DNA from: Heliocybe sulcata | Lineage: Eukaryota; Basidiomycota; Agaricomycetes; Gloeophyllales; Gloeophyllaceae | Length of the DNA stretch: 64,000 bases | Direction: 5' to 3' | NCBI GenBank assembly: GCA_004369045.1 | Contig: ML213507.1 | Span: 1,049,078 to 1,113,077, forward strand | Shown here: positions 8,530 to 64,000 of the stretch, piece by piece | Layout of the letters: each line of letters opens with the position of its first letter | Numbering within the stretch: the stretch's first letter is position 1 | Program-made: the position numbers and the translations under genes | The notes under the pieces: generated by a model | What the model was told of the DNA's origin: nothing | The model's input: only the letters and a program-made list of their open reading frames with translations | Database searches by the model: none

Positions 8530-10038
8530 ATGTCGGATGTCTGCACGGCATATGTCGTGACGTCGTCAGATCCAATGTCTTGGAACGTTAGGCTGGACTT
8601 CTGCGCTGTTCAGGTGGCTGGTTAGTGAAAAAGAACCATATTATGGCGCCTGATATTTAGCTTGATAGTGGTGGTGTCATGGAGAGCGCCAGGATCATTA
8701 TGTATAGGCGCCTGTCGAGCGCCTTGTCATCGCAACGCGAGGTCTTGCAAAGCTTCAGGCCTCGTACAGTTTGCCTGGATATGGGTTGTGACACTTGATC
8801 AAAATACCTTTTCCGTTGCTGAGCTGACCCGGTGAGCTGTATGACCTGAGCGTCTGCTGATCTTTCTAGTAGGTCGTCTTATCACAATTGCAAGGCTCAA
8901 GACATTGGTTGCTGTCATTAGACGAACTCCGCTCTTTTCATTCCAAAAGTCCCATCATTCTTGGGGAGGGCCTTTTGACCGTCACGGCATTCCACAAAAC
9001 GTGTTTATCTTACTGATATATAAAGCACAGACTTTCCTTGATTGAGTTATAGCGCTTCTCAGATGACGAGATGTTGCTTGGAGAACAATCCGACAATCAG
9101 AATATAGTCTCCAGATTTGAATTCAAGGTGTTGCTCTGCTTTCGAACCACCAATGGCACGCTCAATTGGCCAAGTTGACAAGCCGAGCTTTCAGGGCCTT
9201 TCAGCGGATTCGAGACATCCGTTTCTCTGTTTCGCGGCCCTTCCGACAAGATCGCAGAATACCTGGTAGATCTTACTGGCGGTGCGTATGCCTTGAATTT
9301 TCTCTCTTACAGTGGATGCAACTTTCACATAACACAGAAAGACGTGGGGAACACTGTGTTATGATTTGAGGGCGAGACGTTCGGACGGAACGTCAGCCCC
9401 AGTATGAGTTACATCGCTTTTTAGGGCTCGTGCCTCAGCAGGTCTTCCTTTCCAATGGGGGGCGTCAATATTATCCCCGGAAGCATGCGCCTCAATGTGC
9501 GTCGACGTCGCCTGATTCAGCTCTTCAGGTTGACCAGCCGGGCAAACTTCATCCCAAACGAGCGTGATGTCCTCTCCTACGACTGCTCATCCCCAATAAC
9601 AGTGCACCCGGTGCGATCATGATCCATAGCTCATTACCAGGTGCGCCTTGGTAATAACGCAGAGCACGCTGAGACAGTCCCGACGTATTCTTAGACTCAC
9701 ACAAGGACGTGTCAGTGGACCGATGGAGACAAAAGAATGCAAGGACAGCACCTCCTATCATACAGCAAAGTCAGCGCGGCTGGCTCCGATGCGAGTGGAC
9801 CATGGACTGTGTTACCTTGAAAAATGTACGTGCCGTACTCTGCTTGACACTCGCTCCCGAATTGCGCAGCATCTTCTTACAGTTCTGCACGCATTGCTCT
9901 ACTGATAGGAATGGAGTTGCACGGTACTGTCAGGCAGGAGGTATGGGTTTTGACTTAAGCACCGCGGTCTCGACTCCTGAGCACTGCTGGCGAATATATA
10001 AAAGAATCGACTGTGAGCCGAGAGGACCCAACGAAACG
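8530..10038. other. Intergenic, no supported gene
   Basis: This 1.5-kb stretch separates the tannase gene from the dsRBD-like cluster. Only short unrelated frames are present; I see no tRNA, no repeat and no splice-consistent coding series. Confidence 0.5.
9994..10003 (+). promoter_or_regulatory. TATA box of dsRBD-like gene 1
   Basis: ATATATAAAA lies 36-45 bp upstream of the ATG at 10039, so this gene has a very short leader. Confidence 0.5.
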
Positions 10039-10392
10039 ATGCCTGGACAGAATGAACAGAACCGTAAGTATTTGGTCTCATATACCTCTCACAGTGACCG
10101 GTGCTTTCACCATCTATAGATCACCGAATGGCTTTGAACAACTGGCTTCAAGGCCACCCGCGGTTCGGTAAAGTGACCTGGGCGCAGTCCCAAGGTGGAC
10201 TCCAGCATGATCCCGTCTGGAGTGCGACGGCCTACGGTAAGATGACCAGTCCATGGAAGCATGCGCAAGTTGTACTCACGACGGCATATAGTTCGCGGCA
10301 TCGAATACGGTAAAGGAATGGGGACAACTTTAGGAGAGGCTAAGGAAAAGGCCGCATACGCTGCTCTGGCGGCTCTGAAGACGAGTCCCTGA
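10039..10392 (+). CDS. Small dsRNA-binding-domain-like protein 1 (80 aa)
   Basis: Exons 10039-10063, 10120-10236 and 10292-10392 join to 80 residues that are almost entirely one dsRBD-like fold. Helix 1 is RMALNNWLQ, strand 1 KVTWAQSQ, the loop GGLQHDPVWSATA, strand 3 GIEYGKGMG and helix 2 EAKEKAAYAALAALK. In known dsRBDs helix 1, the G..H loop and a KKxAK start of helix 2 touch dsRNA; here helix 2 has GEAKEKAA, so only part of the basic patch remains. Both introns are phase 1, and exon 2 is exactly 117 nt, as in the two downstream homologues. No other domain and no signal peptide are present. Function is unknown: dsRNA binding, or a degenerate dsRBD used for protein contacts, are both possible. 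Confidence 0.82.
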
Positions 10393-12172
10393 TTCGGTGG
10401 GTAGTTCCTTGGAAGCGCATCTGACATCCGGACTGAGCATGATGTCTGCTTGTGTTAGACAGAAGCACCGCAAACATTACTTTTTCCCAAATCGCGTTTA
10501 AATGCGATAGCAAGCTGCGGTGTAAGGCTTACTTGCAGTATTAGTATAATCATCCTCAGTTTCCTATTTCTCGACGCACTAGATGACACAGGTAGAACGG
10601 ACCTTCGCGAGTATTCGTAATCTATATTCACCTCTCAAATCACTGTCTTGATGGGAGCGAAACCAATTTGGCTGCGACTCCCCCCGAACCTGGCACTCTG
10701 CGACTCGGATACTATGACGCTGCAGGTGAATCACAAGGGAACGGGCGCTCATGATATCTGAGTTCTTGGAGCTACCAAGCGCTCATCGCCAGAGTCTGAG
10801 ACGTACCTATCGACTTCGAAGATTAATTAGCCTTCTGACCATACTCGCTGAGATGCGAGATCATGGGCGCCAACTACAATGTACAAGCGCCGGCCTGCTC
10901 CGGCATCCAACCAGACCTCCGCAAACTTCCGGGAAGATTTCACTCTTGCTGTTCTTTCATGATCAGGTTTCGTGTCTATCGTTGTATTGTGGGCACAGCG
11001 TTATTGTCAGAATTTGACTCAATCTCGTCACTTACAGCGGCTGAGGACTCTCAATTCTATCGGCGACCGCAACAACAGAACCGAGAATGGTATCGACTGC
11101 TCGCCCGCTTCATTTATCCTAGGGAAAATCCCGGCGTCCAAATCCAGTTCTTGGATCAGCTATACATGTAATATTCCGAGATGTCGCACACCAATGCCTT
11201 CTGCAACACTGTCGACGTGCTGTGGGTGCTGCTGTGCATTCACTTCCATTCCACGGTTTCGCACCGGGGCTCGTGCAACCGATGTTAACGACTACACCCG
11301 GTAACTCTTGCTTAATGCTATAGTCGCAAGTCATCCAGGTGCTACAAATCCCGTCTCGCCTCCCATCACATCATTGAGCAGTACTGCTTTGCTCAGGGTG
11401 TGCGGTACAGCCAGGTGAATTGGATCTGGCGCCTCAAAGAGACCAGAGCTGATTACCTGATTATCCTAGACGACCGATCGTTCCAGTTCCAATACGTCGT
11501 GTCCGTGACCATGTTTTTCAAATGCTTAACGTTGACGCCCTTGCCTCTCGAGATCAGGCCGGGGATGTACATCCTGAAGCCCCCGCGTGACTACGCACTC
11601 GCGGTACATGCTGTGTCCGATTGTGCCGACCTAGGAGTTCATACCAGGATTGCTTCTTCGCATACGCTCCGTCCTGAACTCAGGTCAATGCTGGCATGCA
11701 ATGACCGGAGAACGCGTCCGAGAGCAGCAAGTTGCATGTCAGCGTCATATTCCGGCTTTTTGATGGGTAGTGCTCGCTCACAGCTCTTAGTTGGTGAAAT
11801 CTAATTTGCTTACACAGAGCTCAAACAGCGTCGACAGACGGCTCGGGCGTGGAGCTTCCAGGAGGCAGTACTCAGTACCGCAACTTCGTGTTCGATGCTG
11901 CTCCCGCCGGCGCGGAGACCGCAGCCACGTACAGCAAGCCATGTATCTGTATTACCAGTTAAGTCATTCTCGAGGTTTGTTCTCTTGCCAGTGCAAAAGC
12001 AAATATTGGATTCACCGGTGTCTCTCACGGAGAAATGGGCAGTGATGTCCTTGGATATGGATAGCAGTCTTGAAGGTATAAAATGGCTTTCTCCTACTAT
12101 GCTGCGACATACCAAAGCTTCCTTATCTTCTGCCCGTTGTACGCTCGAGCAACCATTACTACCACTTCCGCT
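10393..12172. other. Gap between dsRBD-like genes 1 and 2 with possible unrecognised coding pieces
   Basis: No complete gene could be built. Two plus-strand stretches look protein-like. One is 10597-10730, with ATPPEPGTLRLGYYDAAG followed by a GTGAAT donor. The other is a possible last exon at 11810-11960 after a CACAG acceptor, with GGSTQYRNFVFDAAPAG and a Cys-containing end before TAA. They might be parts of one spliced or decayed gene that I cannot identify. Confidence 0.3.
12077..12084 (+). promoter_or_regulatory. TATA box of dsRBD-like gene 2
   Basis: TATAAAAT lies about 90 bp upstream of the ATG at 12173. Confidence 0.45.
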
Positions 12173-12540
12173 ATGGCCGCCCAGGACGATCCTTTCAGGG
12201 GTACGCGTCCTCTGGTTCAAGTACAAGCACGTATTGACACACTGCTTTCAGACTGGAAGATGATGCTAAACAATAAAATCGCCCAACGCGAAATTATGGG
12301 CAGGCTCGAGTACGAGACCACCTCGAAGGGCCCCAAGCACGACCAGACTTGGACATCTATTGCGAGGCGTGAGTGCTCATCGTCAAGTCTGAGATTTAGT
12401 CAAGACCCTGACGGTTGCGTTTAGTGAACGGTATTGAATACGGCAGAGGAACAGGACGCACTAAACTCGCTGCCGAGAACGCAGCCTCATACCGAGTCTG
12501 TGAGGCTCACGAGCGGGATAGAGCTCGCCAGCGTCGCTAA
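12173..12540 (+). CDS. Small dsRNA-binding-domain-like protein 2 (86 aa)
   Basis: Exons 12173-12200, 12252-12368 (117 nt) and 12425-12540 give 86 residues. The layout matches protein 1: helix 1 MMLNNKIAQ, strand 1 GRLEYETTS, loop KGPKHDQTWTSIA, strand 3 NGIEYGRGTGRT, helix 2 KLAAENAASYRV. It ends in a basic tail, RDRARQRR, that the other two lack and that could add nucleic-acid affinity. The helix-2 start (KLAAENAA) lacks the canonical KKxAK. Intron positions and phases are the same as in the other two copies, so the genes arose by duplication after the introns were in place. Role unknown; small size and tandem arrangement suggest an accessory or defence-type function, which is inference. Confidence 0.82.
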
Positions 12541-14383
12541 TAATTAACAGTGTGTAATTGTAGATGAATCCACTCTCGATATAGTGGAGATTGAATATTA
12601 AACCGCGATGGCGCAGACGCCGGACTTTTCTCCTTATTTTACTTGCAGAGGAAGCAGGGCGCTACTAGAGTGAGCATGCAATGAAGGAGTCAGTCGTCCA
12701 CTCGCCTCGGAATATGGATACATTCAGTACTCCGACATGCTGCTGTCTGTGGAATTGAATATCACATCGACATCTCGCGGTATAAAGGAAATGCGGAAGT
12801 CATTTGTATGAATCAGTGTCCTTCATTCTGTGCACGTGTTTCCGAGCCAGATACCTCGGCTGCGGGTAACTTGCCAGGCATTGGGCATCCACTAGTGCAC
12901 GCTGGGATTTGTAGCCCATCAGTTCCGAAAAAGCTTCCTATGTCCACACTTCGCATCTGGAGCAACAGACTCTTAAGTCCTCTATTGGTGTCTTTAGTAC
13001 TCCGATGAGCCCTTCGCTAATAATACTGAAGGCCAAGTAAAAGTGCACGCCGCGGCTTGCAAGCGGACGCTGCCACAACATATGGAAAACTCACGTGACC
13101 ATCTATTTTTGGCTATAGCTTAAGCGCCACACATTCGAAGTTGTTAGTTGTAAGTTAGTTCTCATAGATCTCATAGCTGGGAATTCGCTCTCGAGATACT
13201 TACTCGCAATGTGAGACTCTAGTCCGGCAATTAAACAATATGGTAGTGTGTCCGAATAACTTCTCCGTGACTGATGATCTCACCGGCAGTAATATTCTTG
13301 CGATACAGTCCATCCAGCAAACCACGCCGAGTCCCACGTCCGAACGGAACACGAAATGACCAGGACGCGACGGGTAACTGCTGGTTTGCCTCAGGTTATT
13401 CAGATGATTACGGCGATGCTCTCCGCAGACGCTATGCAGCCGAATCGACATGCTGGATATAATCGGCAATTACAGGGCAAGCTGAGCGCTTCCCAGCTTT
13501 TTCTATGATTTAGAACGTCTTGATACCCTACGCCATATTTAGGAATTTCTGCTCTGCTTTCATCGCATAGCTCTTGTATCAGGTGCATTAATCAAGATGC
13601 CCGTAACCAAAGGCATCGCTACAGGGATGGAACGCCTCTGGGACGGTCTGACGTCGTATGTTCCCTAGGAAAGCCGGGCGGTCACTGGTCATAACCCATA
13701 CATGCAATAGTGAAGGATCGTCGAAATTCCTCTGCTCGAAACGCTATATGGCTACCTTTGTCTCATGCATCTATGCGGCACAGGGACTCCGTATATTTGA
13801 ATCTGGTTTCCTAGCCGACTAGAGTCCACTCGGAAGGCCTTATTAGATTTCGCTGTTGTGATGGACCGACGGACGGAGGTGGCTGGTCGCCGACGTTCAT
13901 ATGCGCAGGAATACGGGGGAAAGGCGTCTTGGCGTCTGAGTCGGACCAGTGTCAAGCCATTGCTGGACTATGCTGCGCGCCGCTCGAGTAAACTCAGAAC
14001 CCGCGTCTCCCGTCCATATTCAGAAGACCGTCGGCATTGATGCTGAACACCATGCGGCGCAATCTTAGGCCCGTAAGGGAGCAAACTGGCATCCGTAGCT
14101 CGCGCAGGTGCCGGTGCACAGAACAATATAGACCTGGGGTTGCATTTCTTGATTCCAAACCTTACACTAGCTGTCCTTCGCCGTCCTACAGCATCGAGAG
14201 GTGGTTCTGGAGTTGTATGAGTCATGGATCCAACAACACTGGTCTTCGCCAAGGTCTCCTCTGCCGACGTTTCGTCACTTATGCAGAGGAGAGGTCTCCT
14301 AGGTTTCTGGTATAAAAGATTGGCTACTGCACGACACCGACTAGCAAAATAATTTACCTCCAATTGCTTCACTTGCAAGGATC
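12541..14383. other. Gap between dsRBD-like genes 2 and 3
   Basis: I looked for a further dsRBD-like copy (a 117-nt exon with LNN near its start, then a GxGxG exon) and found none. A TATAAA at about 12782 precedes a 66-codon frame at 12808-13008 without recognisable features. Confidence 0.45.
14311..14318 (+). promoter_or_regulatory. TATA box of dsRBD-like gene 3
   Basis: TATAAAAG lies 66-73 bp upstream of the ATG at 14384. Confidence 0.5.
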
Positions 14384-14748
14384 ATGGCCCCTACCGAACG
14401 TCAGCGCTCTCACTCGTCTCATGAATTCTTTACTGACAATATAGAACGGCTCGCCACTCAGACCATAGAATGCGCCTGAACAATGTCTTGGCGAGCATAT
14501 TGAAGACCCGCAAGCTGACTTGGGATGACGATTGCAGAGGGCCCCTTCATGCGCCCACATGGACTTCAATTGCCTACCGTGCGTGCAGTTCCCCCCTTCC
14601 CCAAACGCACCATTGACCAGGGATTTTTCTAGTCAACAATGTCGAGTGGGGCCGAGGGACCGGGCCTAACAGAGGCGCTGCGAGGGAAGAGGCCGCCAAG
14701 ACCGTCTTGGAGGCCCTTGTCGCCGACGGGTTAATCTCGAACGTCTGA
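14384..14748 (+). CDS. Small dsRNA-binding-domain-like protein 3 (82 aa)
   Basis: Exons 14384-14399, 14462-14578 (117 nt) and 14633-14748 give 82 residues. The start MAPTEHHRMRLNNVL parallels the HHRMALNN of protein 1, and this homology fixes the first acceptor at 14461 rather than the AG at 14444. Strand 1 is KLTWDDDC, the loop GPLHAPTWTSIA, strand 3 NVEWGRGTGPN and helix 2 AAREEAAKTVLEALVADG. The acidic DDDC and the absence of KKxAK argue for weak or altered dsRNA binding compared with classic dsRBDs. Both introns are phase 1, as in its two neighbours. No partner gene is obvious nearby. Confidence 0.82.
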
Positions 14749-37548: not shown

Positions 37549-39468
37549 TCAGTGCTCGCACATATTCCACTCATGCTCGAACATCTGGTCATTATGCACC
37601 GTCACAAAGTTCGAGCGCTCCTGCATCAGCTTCTCCCGCTCCTCCTTCGCCTGCTCGAGCGTGATCGCTCCGTCCCTCCTTAATTCGTCCGTGATAATGT
37701 CCAACAGCTCTTGCGGGAGTGTCCGCATCCCAGGTAAGCTTGCAGTCTCTCGCATGTACCAGTCCAGCTGTTGTGGCGGGACGACGGACGTCGAGAGGAC
37801 CGTCATTGCCGGGTCGACCAGGAAGAAGGCGAGGATCTTCCTGTGTCCGGGTTTGGACAGGTCCTCGAGCTGGAACGGCGAGACACGGTGTTGTAAGATG
37901 TTAGGGAACACGAGGCACTTCCCCTCGTTCGTCTTGACGCTTCCCAACTCTTGATTCAGCGGACCGCCATTGCCGTCTAGTCCGTAGACCTGAAAATAGC
38001 CCTTGTCATCGCTCTGCTGATACTTCAATTTCTCTTCGTGGAAGCCCTGCCTGAAGCTAAGGTGGGACTCGCTGATGTTGCACGAGTCGTAATAGTATAT
38101 GCCCGTGGCTACGATGCGTTCGTTGAGCATGCCCTCGACGTGCCAGGACCCACCCGGATAGGACGGGTTCTCTGGCGTCAGGACGATGTTAGCCATCTTG
38201 ACGATCACTTGAATGTCGCGGCCTAGCAGGCTGTAGAACTCTTTCGTTGGCGGGGTGAACGCTGAAGGCTCAGGTATGAAGGGTTCGTTCTTTTCGTCCC
38301 ACAGGCTGTAGATGTGCCAGAAAGCTCTTCCCGCTAAGTGAGGGCTGCTGGTATGCTGTGCCAGGAAGGCCTCTTCGGCTGGCTCGGGTGTGGAACGACG
38401 GGGACCCTGATCATACCATCTGTATGGGTCTATCTCGAGCAAAGGCCTCTGGGGTTTCTTCAGGTCTCCTAGGACGCGCTCCCAGAGGGGCACGAACTGC
38501 TCCAGAATACCGGACAGAGTCTGATACAGGGGCTTGTGCTCGTCCGGGTGGAGGTTGTTGATGTACGACAGGGACGCCACTTCTCCCGCTTCTGAGACGG
38601 AGAAGTCGGTAGGCAGCCATTGATGCTGGATTGAGAAACAAGGGGCCTTGTGGTCTATCTCTGGCATGTAGTGACCAGTGAGATCCCTCCTCTGTTCAAT
38701 ATACTGTTGGATGGTAGGAGCGTAAAGTGAACGTGTGTCGGGATGCTTCGCAAGCGACTTGCCAAGGCGGAAGCAGTATAAAGACGGATGGACCAGGTCT
38801 AGTACTAGGCCGTCGCTTCCAGGGTGCCAGTCCTTCTGTGCTTCGGGTACGGACTCGAGGAGCGCTGCACCTCGAATGAGAGCGTCTCGAAGATCCGTCG
38901 GGACAATATTATAAGCCTGATAGACCTTGGGTATGTGGCTGGCCTAGTGAAACACAGGTCAGAGTATGCCGATTATCGGATGCATTCATCGCCATACCTC
39001 TATACCTCTGTCAGCATCGCGCTGGTCGGCCAGACACCTAAGCCAGTCAAAGGCATAGTTCAACTGTACCTTGGTTATGGGCTTCTTCGGCCACGGCGAC
39101 CCCTCCCTGACCGGCTTTCGTCGAATACGCCAAGTGCGGTTCCACATATCGACGATTTCCTGTGGGTCATCTGGTACAGTTGGCGCGGGTTCCGAGTTTT
39201 CAGGCCAAAACTTGCGCACACGCTCTGCATCCTGTTCGACGAATTCCTTGCGCCAGTTGGCGACGATACTGTCATCGCGAACTTTGTTCCACCAGTTAGT
39301 CTTCTCCATAATTTCCCCGATCAGCACCCGTATACGACGCTCAACGAGAGTCATGGCATCCCCCCGCCCTGCATGGAAGGGGTCCGGGAAGTATGGCCAC
39401 TCCTCCTCCTCGAAGTCCTCCTCGAACTCATCGGGCTCTGGCAAAGCGGCATGGTCAGTATCTGACAT
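37549..39468 (-). CDS. DUF4246 family protein, copy A (621 aa)
   Basis: Member of a fungal family of unknown function. Exons (minus) 39468-38998 and 38943-37549 give 621 residues. Exon 1 is acidic, with a conserved RIRVLIGEIMEKTNWWNKVR block. The core has GGSWHVEGMLNE with H425 and E427, then FPNILQHRVSPF with H509 and GHRKIL with R525. This His-x-Glu ... His ... Arg spacing looks like a 2-oxoglutarate/Fe(II) dioxygenase core, an inference from pattern and not a proven activity. The ATG at 39468 is preferred over 39519 because a TATA box lies at 39531-39536. It is the most divergent of the three copies: A starts exon 2 with ASHIPKVYQAY, whereas B and C start with MMHI.NVYQSY. Confidence 0.93.
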
Positions 39469-44659: not shown

Positions 44660-46486
44660 ATGAGCCTGGAGGATATCTCGTTCCCTAACCCATTCACCTC
44701 GCAAGGCGAGATCTTCACGCTCCTCGAGTGCCGGATCCGAGCTCTCGCAGGACAAATCCTCGAGAAACCTGAGTGGTGGCGCAAAGTCCGAGACGAAGAG
44801 ATTATATCTAAATGGCGCCAGGAATTCACAGAGCAAGACGCGGAGCTCGTAAAGAAAGTGTGGCCGAAGCTGCAAGAAGACTACGACGAATCCAATGACG
44901 ACAATGGCGACTGGAATGCAAACAAGCACTGGCCACATAAGAAGATTACGCCCGAACAGCTGAACTATCTATTCGGCTGGCTGAGATGGCTCGCGGACCA
45001 ACGCGACGCAAAGACTGGCATAGAGGTATGCCACGAGCTATGTGTGTAATGGACTCAATATAACAATTGATGGCAGATGATGCATATTCGAAACGTCTAT
45101 CAGTCGTATAGCCTCGTCTCCCTTCATCTTAGGGATGCTCTTCTAAAAGATGCCCTCGTTCTCGAGTCAGTGCCAGAGGCCGAGAAGGATTGGCACCCGG
45201 GCAGCAACAACCAAGTTCTCGACTTGATCCACCCATCACTACATTGCTTTCGTATCGGCAAAACGCTTGTGAACCATTCCGAGACAGGTTCGCTGTATGT
45301 CCCGACAGTGAAGGAATATATGGATGGCAGGAAGGATCTCAGGTTTAATTACACGCCTACTGCATTGCGTCCATCTTCTATATCTGACCAGCACCAGTGG
45401 CTGCCAACCGACTTCTTAGTCTCTGAAGACGGTGAAGTGAAATGCCTGTCGTATATCAACAACTTGCATCCCGACAGCCACAAGTCCCTGTATTCGACAA
45501 TTACCTCAATCCTTGCGAAGTTTGTACCTCTCTGGGACCGTGTCCTGTCGGACGTCCTCGCGGGTCAAGGACCGATAATAGTGGTTGATCCATACAGCTG
45601 GTACGACAACCGCAGTACGCCCCAGCCAGAGCTTGAAGGCTTCAAGCAGCAGCACCCAAAGGATGAGAACGCCGCTACAGCTGCGTACTGCCATGCCGAG
45701 GAGGAATGGTGGAATAGCAGGGATCCGTACGTTCCTGAGCCCGACGAGTTTTCTCCACCCGATGCAGAAGATAGGGTGAACTTTACCCTTAGGGGTAGGA
45801 CCATTCAAGTCATCGTTAAGATGGCGAATATTATCCTGACACCCGAGGAGCCCGAATACGCGGGTGGGTCCTGGCATGTCGAAGGCATGGACAACGAGAG
45901 GATCGTCGCCACCGGAATTTATTATTACGACTCGTCGAACGTTACCGAGTCCAAGCTAAGCTTCCGCCATGCTCTGGGTGAAGGGATGGACATGCCCTAC
46001 GATCAGGGCGATAGGCAAGGCTACATCCGGGCGTACGGTGTCAATGGCAACGAAGGCCCGTTAAACCAGGAACTAGGGTATGTTGTGACGAAGGAAGGGA
46101 AGTGCCTTGCGTTCCCGAACATATGGCAACATTGCGTTTCGCCATTCAAGCTGGACAATCCTTCGAGACCCGGACACCGCAAGATTTTGTGTTTCTTTCT
46201 CGTCGACCCGACATTGAAGATCCATTCGACGTCAGTTGTCCCACCTCAACAATACGAATGGTACATGCGCGAGTTGCGGCGGGCGCCGGCGTTGAAGAAG
46301 CTCCCGGTGGAGTTATTCGATATCATAGCGGGTCTCGTGAAAGAGGATGGGAGCGGAACGGGAGGTGCGATTACGTTGGACCAAGCGAAGGCCGTGAGGG
46401 AAGAGTTGATGGAGGAACGTGCCAATTTTGTCGTCGAGTTGAATGAAGAGGTCTACGAGATGGAGTTTAACATGTGTGAGCATTGA
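44660..46486 (+). CDS. DUF4246 family protein, copy B (591 aa)
   Basis: Exons 44660-45025 and 45077-46486 give 591 residues, with the single intron at the same place as in copies A and C (after TGIE or GIE). Exon 1 has RIRALAGQILEKPEWWRKVR. The core is GGSWHVEGMDNE (H389, E391), FPNIWQHCVSPF (H474) and GHRKIL (R490), keeping all residues of the presumed metal and co-substrate site. Next to H474 it has Cys where A and C have Arg. Its closest relative here is copy C, with nearly identical SVPEAEKDWHPGSNNQVLDL and VPPQQ..W blocks. Function is unknown; the dioxygenase-like reading is an inference. Confidence 0.94.
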
Positions 46487-62364: not shown

Positions 62365-64000
62365 TTAATGCTCGCGCATACTGAACGGTAGCTCATACAC
62401 CTGCTCGTTCTGCTTGAACACGACCTTGGCCCGTTCCTTCATCAGTTTCTCCCTCTCTTCCTTCGCGTGCTCCATCGTAATAACCCCTCCCCTGCCAGCA
62501 TCATCCGCCTTCAACCAGTCCGTGATCATCTCGAACAACTCGACAGGAAGATTCTGCATGGCTGGTGCGCGTTCCAACTCGCGCATGCACCAGTCGAATT
62601 GCTGCGGAGGCACTACGGACGTCGACAGGATCTCGATGGTAGGATTGACGAGGAAGAAGCAAAGAATCTTCCGGTGCCCAGGCTTCGATGTATCGACCAA
62701 CTTAAATGGTGAAACGCGATGCTGCCAGATATTTGGGAAGGCCAGGCATTTACCTTCCTTAGTGATCACGGATCCAAGGTTTTGGTTCAAGGGCCCATCG
62801 CTTCCATCGATACCGTATACCATCAGATAGCCCTTGTGATCGCCCTTCTGGTACCGTTGGTCCATGTCTTCACACAACGCAGTGCGGAAACTAATCTTCG
62901 ACTCTGTGACGTTCGACGAGTCGTAGTAGTAGATTCCAATAGCAACAATCTTCTCGTTGTCCATCCCCTCGACATGCCACGAGCCGCCTGCGTACTCCGG
63001 CACCTCAGGCGTCAAGGTGATGTTCGCCATCTTGACGATAACCTGAATCTTGCGCCCTTTCAGGGTGAGGCTGACCTGCTCTTTGGGGTCAGGAGGAGTA
63101 AATGGATCCGGCTCCGGGATGCAGGGTTCCTTTAGCTTCTTCCAGATATGGTAAGCGCGGTAATATTCACGTCGAGCCGCATCTGTATCTCCGGGATAGT
63201 CCTTTTGAATCACCTCCAGTACGGGCTCTGAGGGCTCTGACATGAGGCTCCGCTGGTACCACTCAAACGGATCAGCCTCAATAACTGGCCTCTGAGGGCT
63301 GGCGACGTCCGCGAGAACGCGCTCCCACAGAGGAACAAAACGCTCAAGGACAGTTGTTATTGTCAAATAGAGGGCCTTGTGATCGTCGGGGTGAAGATTG
63401 TTGATGTACGATAGATGCTGCACTTCGCCTGTTTCTGACACGGAGAAGTCGGTCGGTAGCCACTGGAACTGGCGGGATAACGAGTAAGGAGTCGAGCTGA
63501 ACGGAGTGTGCCCGAGGTCTTCTCGCGCGTCGATATACTCGTCCACTGAGGGGACATATAGCGATCCAGTTGCAGGATTCCTCACGAGCGACTTGCCGAT
63601 ACGGAGACAGTTGAGCGATGGGTGGATGAGGTCGAGCACCTGATTGTTACTGCCTGGATGCCAGTCTTTCTCTGCTTCCGGAACCGATTCAAGGACTGAT
63701 GCCCCTCGAAGGAGCGCCTCTCTGAGCTCGGGAGAAATGAGATTGTATGACTGATATACGTTCGAGATGTGCATCATCTAAAGAGGAATGTGACTTTGTA
63801 TTCGGAACATCTGGAGGTGTCTGTCGCACCTCTATACCGGTCACTGGGTCGCGCTGGTCCGCGAGCCATTTCAGCCAGTCGAAGATATAATCGAGTTGCT
63901 TCCTGGTGATAACTTTGTGAGGCCAACGCTTATTCTGTGACCATTGGCCGTAATGCTCCTCGCTGTCGTCTTCGCTGTCCGTTGGCTGAAGGTGGAACCA
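62365..64000 (-). CDS. DUF4246 family protein, copy C (partial at the right edge)
   Basis: The last exon 63777-62365 (470 codons) and 57 codons of the preceding exon (64000-63830) are present; the start lies outside. The core matches copy B: GGSWHVEGMDNEKIVAIGI, FPNIWQHRVSPF, GHRKILCFFLVNP and STSVVPPQQFDW, so the His-x-Glu ... His ... Arg set is complete. The visible part of exon 1 has RWPHKVITRKQLDYIFDWLK and ends ADQRDPVTGIE, the same splice position as in A and B. The C-terminus ends in MREH where A and B end in MCEH. No sign of decay is seen. Confidence 0.93.

What the first reader, a model, noticed from the sequence alone, without database searches (positions are those of the whole stretch)
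10039..14748. Tandem cluster of three single-domain dsRBD-like microproteins
Three plus-strand genes in 4.7 kb each encode 80-86 residues that are little more than one dsRBD-like fold (LNN helix, G..HD loop with W, GIEYGKG or GVEWGRG strand, Ala-rich helix 2). All have three exons, a 117-nt middle exon and two phase-1 introns, so they are duplicates. All lack a full KKxAK dsRNA-binding motif. Stand-alone dsRBDs this small could act as dsRNA sensors, RNA-silencing modulators or dimerising inhibitors of larger dsRBD proteins. I know of no described role for such a cluster.
Basis: partly seen in the sequence, partly recalled or inferred. Interest (0 to 1): 0.7.

Follow-up and report, generated by a model that had tools for sequence, protein, structure and literature searches.

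The report
Fungal single-dsRBD small-protein gene cluster
Three neighbouring genes of a fungus each seem to make a tiny protein that is little more than one double-stranded-RNA-binding domain; they belong to a wider family in the same genome whose job is unknown but may lie in sensing or silencing double-stranded RNA.

Summary
g1, g2 and g3 encode 80, 86 and 82 residues from three exons each, with a 117-nt middle exon and two phase-1 introns. All three spliced proteins pass Pfam's dsRBD cut-off (PF00035). A profile built only from four copies elsewhere in the genome recovers exons 2 and 3 of all three genes and no other window ORF below E 2.4.

The cluster is not isolated. I modelled seven solo-dsRBD genes in this genome (a lower bound). 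Their second intron sits at one column and phase, and so does the intron in six dsRBDs of three larger genes: an RNase III-like gene with two dsRBDs, and two tandem genes fusing a kinase to two dsRBDs, a PKR-like domain set. Codon positions show protein-level constraint. Domain matches to Argonaute, RdRP and Dicer-type RNase III are present.

The helix-2 lysines are eroded in the window genes; the loop histidine is kept in seven of seven solos. Best mechanism, inferred: weak dsRNA binders or dsRBD partners that tune dsRNA-triggered silencing or kinase signalling. Structure prediction did not run. I had no expression or cross-species data.

The parts
10039..10392 (+). g1: solo-dsRBD gene, exons 10039-10063, 10120-10236, 10292-10392; 80 aa
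   Evidence: spliced model; Pfam dsrm 31.8 bits; exons 2 and 3 found by an outside-window profile
9995..10001 (+). TATA-like element TATATAA 44 nt before the g1 ATG
   Evidence: 5 of 7 solo genes have a TATAWAW within 110 nt, against 126 of 7594 background stretches
12173..12540 (+). g2: solo-dsRBD gene, exons 12173-12200, 12252-12368, 12425-12540; 86 aa
   Evidence: Pfam dsrm 41.8 bits
12077..12083 (+). TATA-like element TATAAAA 96 nt before the g2 ATG
14384..14748 (+). g3: solo-dsRBD gene, exons 14384-14399, 14462-14578, 14633-14748; 82 aa
   Evidence: Pfam dsrm 25.0 bits
14311..14317 (+). TATA-like element TATAAAA 73 nt before the g3 ATG

Best explanation
g1-g3 are protein-coding genes of a solo-dsRBD family in a fungus. 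Seven copies were modelled in this genome, three of them here in tandem. Shown by computation: gene models, dsRBD homology, shared introns, coding constraint, and domain matches for an RNAi kit in the genome. Inferred: the small proteins work in trans on dsRNA-dependent processes. Each could lay its conserved loop histidine into the minor groove of dsRNA, or pair with another dsRBD, but lacks the full lysine cluster linked to tight binding. They would then compete with, bridge or restrain larger dsRBD proteins of the same cell: the RNase III-like protein R3, the Dicers and the two dsRBD kinases. The net effect would be to set the threshold of silencing or signalling started by viral or transposon dsRNA. 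TATA-type promoters and strong divergence fit inducible, conflict-driven genes. Identity as dsRBD genes: about 0.97. The mechanism: the confidence given here.
For: Pfam dsrm above cut-off in 6 of 7 solos. Closest solved chains by profile: PKR dsRBDs E 5.6e-10 for the whole chain (best single stretch 3.4e-4) and an RNase III E 2.2e-8. Intron in the same column (69), phase 1, in 7 of 7 solos and 6 of 6 dsRBDs of R3, K1 and K2; absent from the one other dsRBD compared, which I take for MRPL3-like from memory. Loop histidine in 7 of 7 solos. Helix-2 positions 1 and 5 both basic in 2 of 7 solos (g3 R/R, g6 K/K), both lysine in 5 of 6 domains of the larger genes (read off the alignment). Identity by codon position 0.513/0.512/0.322 over 21 solo pairs, 0.26-0.27 expected from composition. 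TATAWAW within 110 nt upstream in 5 of 7 solos against 126 of 7594 overlapping background stretches of the window and eight loci, both strands. Piwi over cut-off at 3 loci, RdRP at 6, paired RNase III domains at 2.
Against: No expression, binding or phenotype data. No fungal collection was on hand, so conservation between species and dN/dS are unknown. Net charge of the domains given is low (-2 to +5). g6 falls just below the Pfam cut-off (21.4 of 23); g4 and g6 have no TATAWAW. The loop histidine is missing from 2 of 6 domains of the larger genes (K1d2, K2d2), so it is not a fixed mark of the lineage. Nothing ties the solos to RNAi except domain kinship, a shared intron and co-occurrence in one genome. 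None of the papers listed in ten searches was seen to describe such a role.
Confidence: 0.4

Rival explanations
1. Type B reading: the solos do not bind RNA and act only as protein-protein adaptors or dimerising inhibitors of Dicer, the RNase III-like protein or the dsRBD kinases.
For: g1 and g2 each lack one of the two outer lysines of helix 2, and none of g1-g3 has KKxAK. Type B dsRBDs are described as lacking two critical lysines of region 3 and binding proteins instead (PMC5716075, passages seen).
Against: The loop histidine is kept in 7 of 7 solos, which pure protein binding would not need. g3 has arginines in both outer places and g6 lysines.
Confidence: 0.25
2. Ordinary type A reading: plain low-affinity dsRNA binders that coat or stabilise structured RNA (housekeeping or developmental), with no immune or silencing role.
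For: dsRBDs occur in many RNA-processing proteins (general knowledge); membership in the domain family is confirmed by sequence.
Against: Several strongly diverged paralogues, tandem groups and TATA promoters are, in my judgement, not typical of housekeeping genes.
Confidence: 0.2
3. Decaying or non-functional duplicates of dsRBD exons.
For: Third codon positions are not far above chance and proteins are only 30-40% identical.
Against: Open frames, splice sites and intron phases are intact in all three, all three have a TATA-like element, and first and second codon positions are far more alike than third.
Confidence: 0.05
4. Domesticated viral or transposon dsRBD (silencing suppressor) taken up by the genome.
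For: Small dsRBD proteins are used by some viruses as suppressors (one example in a listing, PMC4231766); weak NCBIfam matches of g2 and g3 to a seadornavirus dsRNA-binding protein model at E 0.013 and 0.022, far below its cut-off.
Against: The phase-1 intron shared with RNase III-like and kinase genes points to a cellular origin.
Confidence: 0.05

Closest known systems
dsRBD / dsrm family (PF00035)
   Same: g1-g3 match above cut-off (g1 profile 5-66, g2 1-64, g3 23-66 of 66); HxxxW loop, G-rich strand and Ala-rich helix 2 present
   Different: Protein is little more than the domain; helix-2 lysine cluster eroded
PKR and TRBP dsRBDs
   Same: Among the closest solved chains by sequence
   Different: Those sit in multi-domain proteins; g1-g3 carry no partner domain
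[quoted passage not shown]
   Same: The R3 gene of this genome has this domain set, and its dsRBDs share the solos' intron column and phase (R3B2 from PMC7763443 passages)
   Different: Solos have no RNase III domain; orthology of R3 to R3B2 was not tested
PKR (dsRNA-activated kinase)
   Same: K1 and K2 of this genome join a kinase domain and two dsRBDs in one gene
   Different: dsRBDs are C-terminal (N-terminal in PKR, recalled); the kinase scores best as PK_Tyr_Ser-Thr; the solos themselves have no kinase

Membership tests
dsRBD (PF00035) | Sequence match above curated cut-off | tested here: met
   g1 31.8, g2 41.8, g3 25.0 bits against 23; g4 29.1, g5 35.4, g7 27.7 above, g6 21.4 below
dsRBD (PF00035) | alpha-beta-beta-beta-alpha fold | not tested
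   Structure job interrupted; fold inferred from the sequence match only
Type A (RNA-binding) dsRBD | Region-2 GPxH loop with histidine (motif recalled) | tested here: met
   His in 7 of 7 solos; the GP before it is intact in 5 of 7 (g1 GL, g7 GS)
Type A (RNA-binding) dsRBD | Region-3 lysine cluster KKxAK | tested here: not met
   LGEAK, KLAAE, RGAAR in g1-g3
Type A (RNA-binding) dsRBD | Binds dsRNA | not testable with these tools
   needs purified protein
Type B dsRBD | Loss of the two critical region-3 lysines and no dsRNA binding (PMC5716075 passages) | tested here: inconclusive
   One outer basic residue left in g1 and g2, two arginines in g3; binding not testable
PKR (for K1/K2, not g1-g3) | Kinase of the eIF2-alpha kinase group with dsRBDs (recalled) | tested here: inconclusive
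   Kinase plus two dsRBDs present; best kinase model is PK_Tyr_Ser-Thr (K2 2.6e-43, K1 3.2e-43) ahead of Pkinase; kinase group not resolved by a tree
[quoted passage not shown]
   Two dsrm stretches (1.3e-17); RNase III marginal: Ribonuclease_3 27.2 bits (cut-off 27), Ribonucleas_3_3 30.8 bits (cut-off 35, not met); orthology not tested

The most novel reading that the evidence does not exclude
This fungus has a home-grown dsRNA alarm. Two kinases carry dsRBDs related to those of an RNase III-like gene, making a PKR-like sensor of separate origin. The solo dsRBD proteins, the three in the window among them, are its small decoys or co-activators, much as TRBP and PACT restrain or trigger PKR (that comparison from PMC5716075 passages).
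Probability: 0.13. Interest if true: 0.88.

Novelty: new variant of a known kind. Interest (0 to 1): 0.52.

Why it matters
Fungi are not known to me to have a PKR-like pathway. Two reviews of fungal immunity and cell death, searched by term in their main text, hold neither 'dsRBD' nor 'PKR'. If solo dsRBDs tune dsRNA-driven silencing or a dsRBD kinase, the response of such fungi to mycoviruses gains a second arm beside RNAi, and the question becomes testable with a handful of very small genes.

Tried and rejected
Decay remnants between g1, g2 and g3: none found by the family profiles. Four window ORFs between the genes (11316-11801 +, 10963-11301 +, 13971-14381 -, 12685-13005 +): no Pfam family over its cut-off. 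Weak match at C31 (E 0.018; L005): not found by the family profile. Weak places at C18 (E 0.39), C3 (E 0.083, with stops) and C22 (E 0.74) were not examined. Exon-by-exon search with PF00035 alone misses g1-g3 (one search lists three places, none in the window). Literature: ten searches, listings only, many of them capped (20 of 496 papers shown; 39: 8 of 8; 40: 20 of 25; 43: 15 of 61; 54: 7 of 8; 59: 4 of 4; 60: 6 of 6; 65: 12 of 19,160; 73: 10 of 10; 74: 9 of 9). No listed title or abstract start describes solo-dsRBD clusters or dsRBD kinases in fungi. Passages, not whole texts, of PMC12754623, PMC10197012, PMC12881547, PMC5716075, PMC3937382 and PMC7763443 were seen by term search. Viral contigs: the one attempt failed; the prokaryote, phage, plasmid and E. 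coli collections were not searched. L013 and L014 were fetched but used only as background.
Full report
What was checked. The window lies in a 31.6-Mb genome of 51 contigs. The three reported genes splice cleanly. g1, g2 and g3 have exons of 25/117/101, 28/117/116 and 16/117/116 nt, introns of 51-62 nt with GT and AG ends, both introns phase 1, and encode 80, 86 and 82 residues. The spliced proteins match PF00035 at 31.8, 41.8 and 25.0 bits against a cut-off of 23. The best solved relatives of the three-sequence profile are PKR (E 5.6e-10 for the whole chain, 3.4e-4 for its best single stretch) and an RNase III (E 2.2e-8).

Chance control. Because I chose the splice sites, I also tested exons without splicing. 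The g3 open stretch around exon 2, searched over the whole genome, finds itself, a place on C4 (E 2.4e-7), g2 (7.3e-6), g1 (6.9e-5) and one weak place on C31 (0.018). A profile from g4-g7, none of which lies in the window, finds six window ORFs at E 4e-8 to 2e-4, which are exons 2 and 3 of g1, g2 and g3; the next is at E 2.4. The best in one reversed window is at 9.1 and in one triplet-shuffled window at 0.86.

A wider family. Protein searches of the genome and fetched loci give four more solo copies: g4 on C4:71,094-71,450 (+), g5 on C1:526,791-527,145 (-), g6 on C1:524,323-524,715 (-), and g7 on C20 near 333.0-333.8 kb (-). g4 and g5 have 117-nt middle exons too; g6 has 165 and g7 114. g7 has a longer tail (219 aa as read; its 3' end may hold unseen introns), so it is solo only in having one recognised domain. 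Counts are lower bounds, as the search tool states, and three weak places were not examined. In a tree of 13 domains the seven solos fall on one side of a branch (100/99) from the six dsRBDs of larger genes. The root is a midpoint only, so the direction of descent is not shown. Relations among the solos, g1-g3 included, are largely unresolved; branches are long, and the program warns that the long branches of g2 and g7 meet.

Kin in larger genes. Three further genes carry related dsRBDs. R3 (C1, about 1,030.6-1,032.2 kb, minus) has two dsRBDs and a marginal RNase III-like domain (Ribonuclease_3 27.2 bits, cut-off 27; Ribonucleas_3_3 30.8 bits, cut-off 35). [quoted passage not shown] K1 (about 1,075.6-1,078.2 kb) and K2 (1,079.7-1,082.2 kb) lie in tandem some 43 kb away and join a kinase domain (PK_Tyr_Ser-Thr 3.2e-43 and 2.6e-43) to two dsRBDs (dsrm 8.2e-17 and 1.7e-18). 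In both, one open exon runs from the end of the kinase domain into the first dsRBD, so the fusion does not rest on a guessed splice. In the tree the first dsRBDs of the two kinases pair with each other (85/80), their place relative to R3d1 being unresolved; the second ones pair (99/96) and join R3d2 (82/64). That is modest support for a common origin of the kinase tail and an R3-like gene.

Shared introns. Mapped on the protein alignment, the second intron of all seven solos and the intron inside each of the six larger-gene dsRBDs fall in the same column, phase 1 (13 of 13), while the uninterrupted dsRBD of one other gene, which I take for MRPL3-like from memory, has none. The first intron of the solos falls in one column in six of seven and one column off in g7. 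Common descent within this genome is therefore well supported.

Constraint and promoters. Over 21 solo pairs identity is 0.513, 0.512 and 0.322 at codon positions 1, 2 and 3, with 0.26-0.27 expected from composition: protein-level constraint on old or fast-evolving copies. A TATAWAW element lies within 110 nt before the ATG in 5 of 7 solos (g1, g2, g3, g5, g7), against 126 of 7594 overlapping background stretches taken from the window and eight loci; g4 and g6 lack it.

Binding surface. Helix 2 reads LGEAK, KLAAE, RGAAR, VSIAK, LTAAK, KGVAK and AKDAR in g1-g7, against KQSAK and KQAAK in K1, KQSAK and KKAAM in K2, and KQVAK and KQLAK in R3. The loop histidine is kept in 7 of 7 solos and in 4 of the 6 larger-gene domains. 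Type B dsRBDs are said to lack two critical region-3 lysines and to bind proteins (PMC5716075 passages). The solos are thus between the two classes: weak RNA binding, protein binding, or both, remain open. That the loop histidine enters the minor groove is recalled, not from a call.

Setting. The genome has Piwi matches over cut-off at three loci, RdRP at six (several with in-frame stops that may be introns or decay) and two genes with paired RNase III domains, which I read as Dicers, so dsRNA-driven silencing is likely. I infer that the solos modulate it, or the dsRBD kinases, in trans. This step is not shown. Small 'DRBM domain' proteins of mushrooms in public databases are known to me only from memory and were not tested.

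Verdict. A true and well-structured finding: an expanded solo-dsRBD family of unknown role. The PKR-like kinase genes found in the same genome raise its interest. Without structure, expression or cross-species data, it stays a new variant of a known kind.

Noticed in passing
L011 8095 to L008 1198 (K1) and L008 2689-5190 (K2); C1 about 1,075.6-1,082.2 kb of the same genome: Tandem pair of genes joining a kinase domain to two C-terminal dsRBDs, a PKR-like domain set in a fungus.
   Followed up: partly
L008 2940-2990 (K2 second intron as modelled): This intron appears to start with GC instead of GT (GC-AG), while the matching intron of K1 starts with GT.
   Followed up: no
L012 5582-7172, minus strand: RNase III-like gene (marginal match) with two dsRBDs, similar in domain set to Mucor R3B2.
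   Followed up: partly
window 37552-38943 (-), 45071-46483 (+), 62368-63777 (-): Three DUF4246 genes in 26 kb.
   Followed up: no
L010 3988-4152, minus strand: g6 has a 165-nt middle exon instead of 117 nt, with 16 extra residues after the LNN motif.
   Followed up: no
L002 1501-1686 (C1:1917433-1917618, -): A dsrm match inside a 923-residue open frame, not identified further.
   Followed up: no
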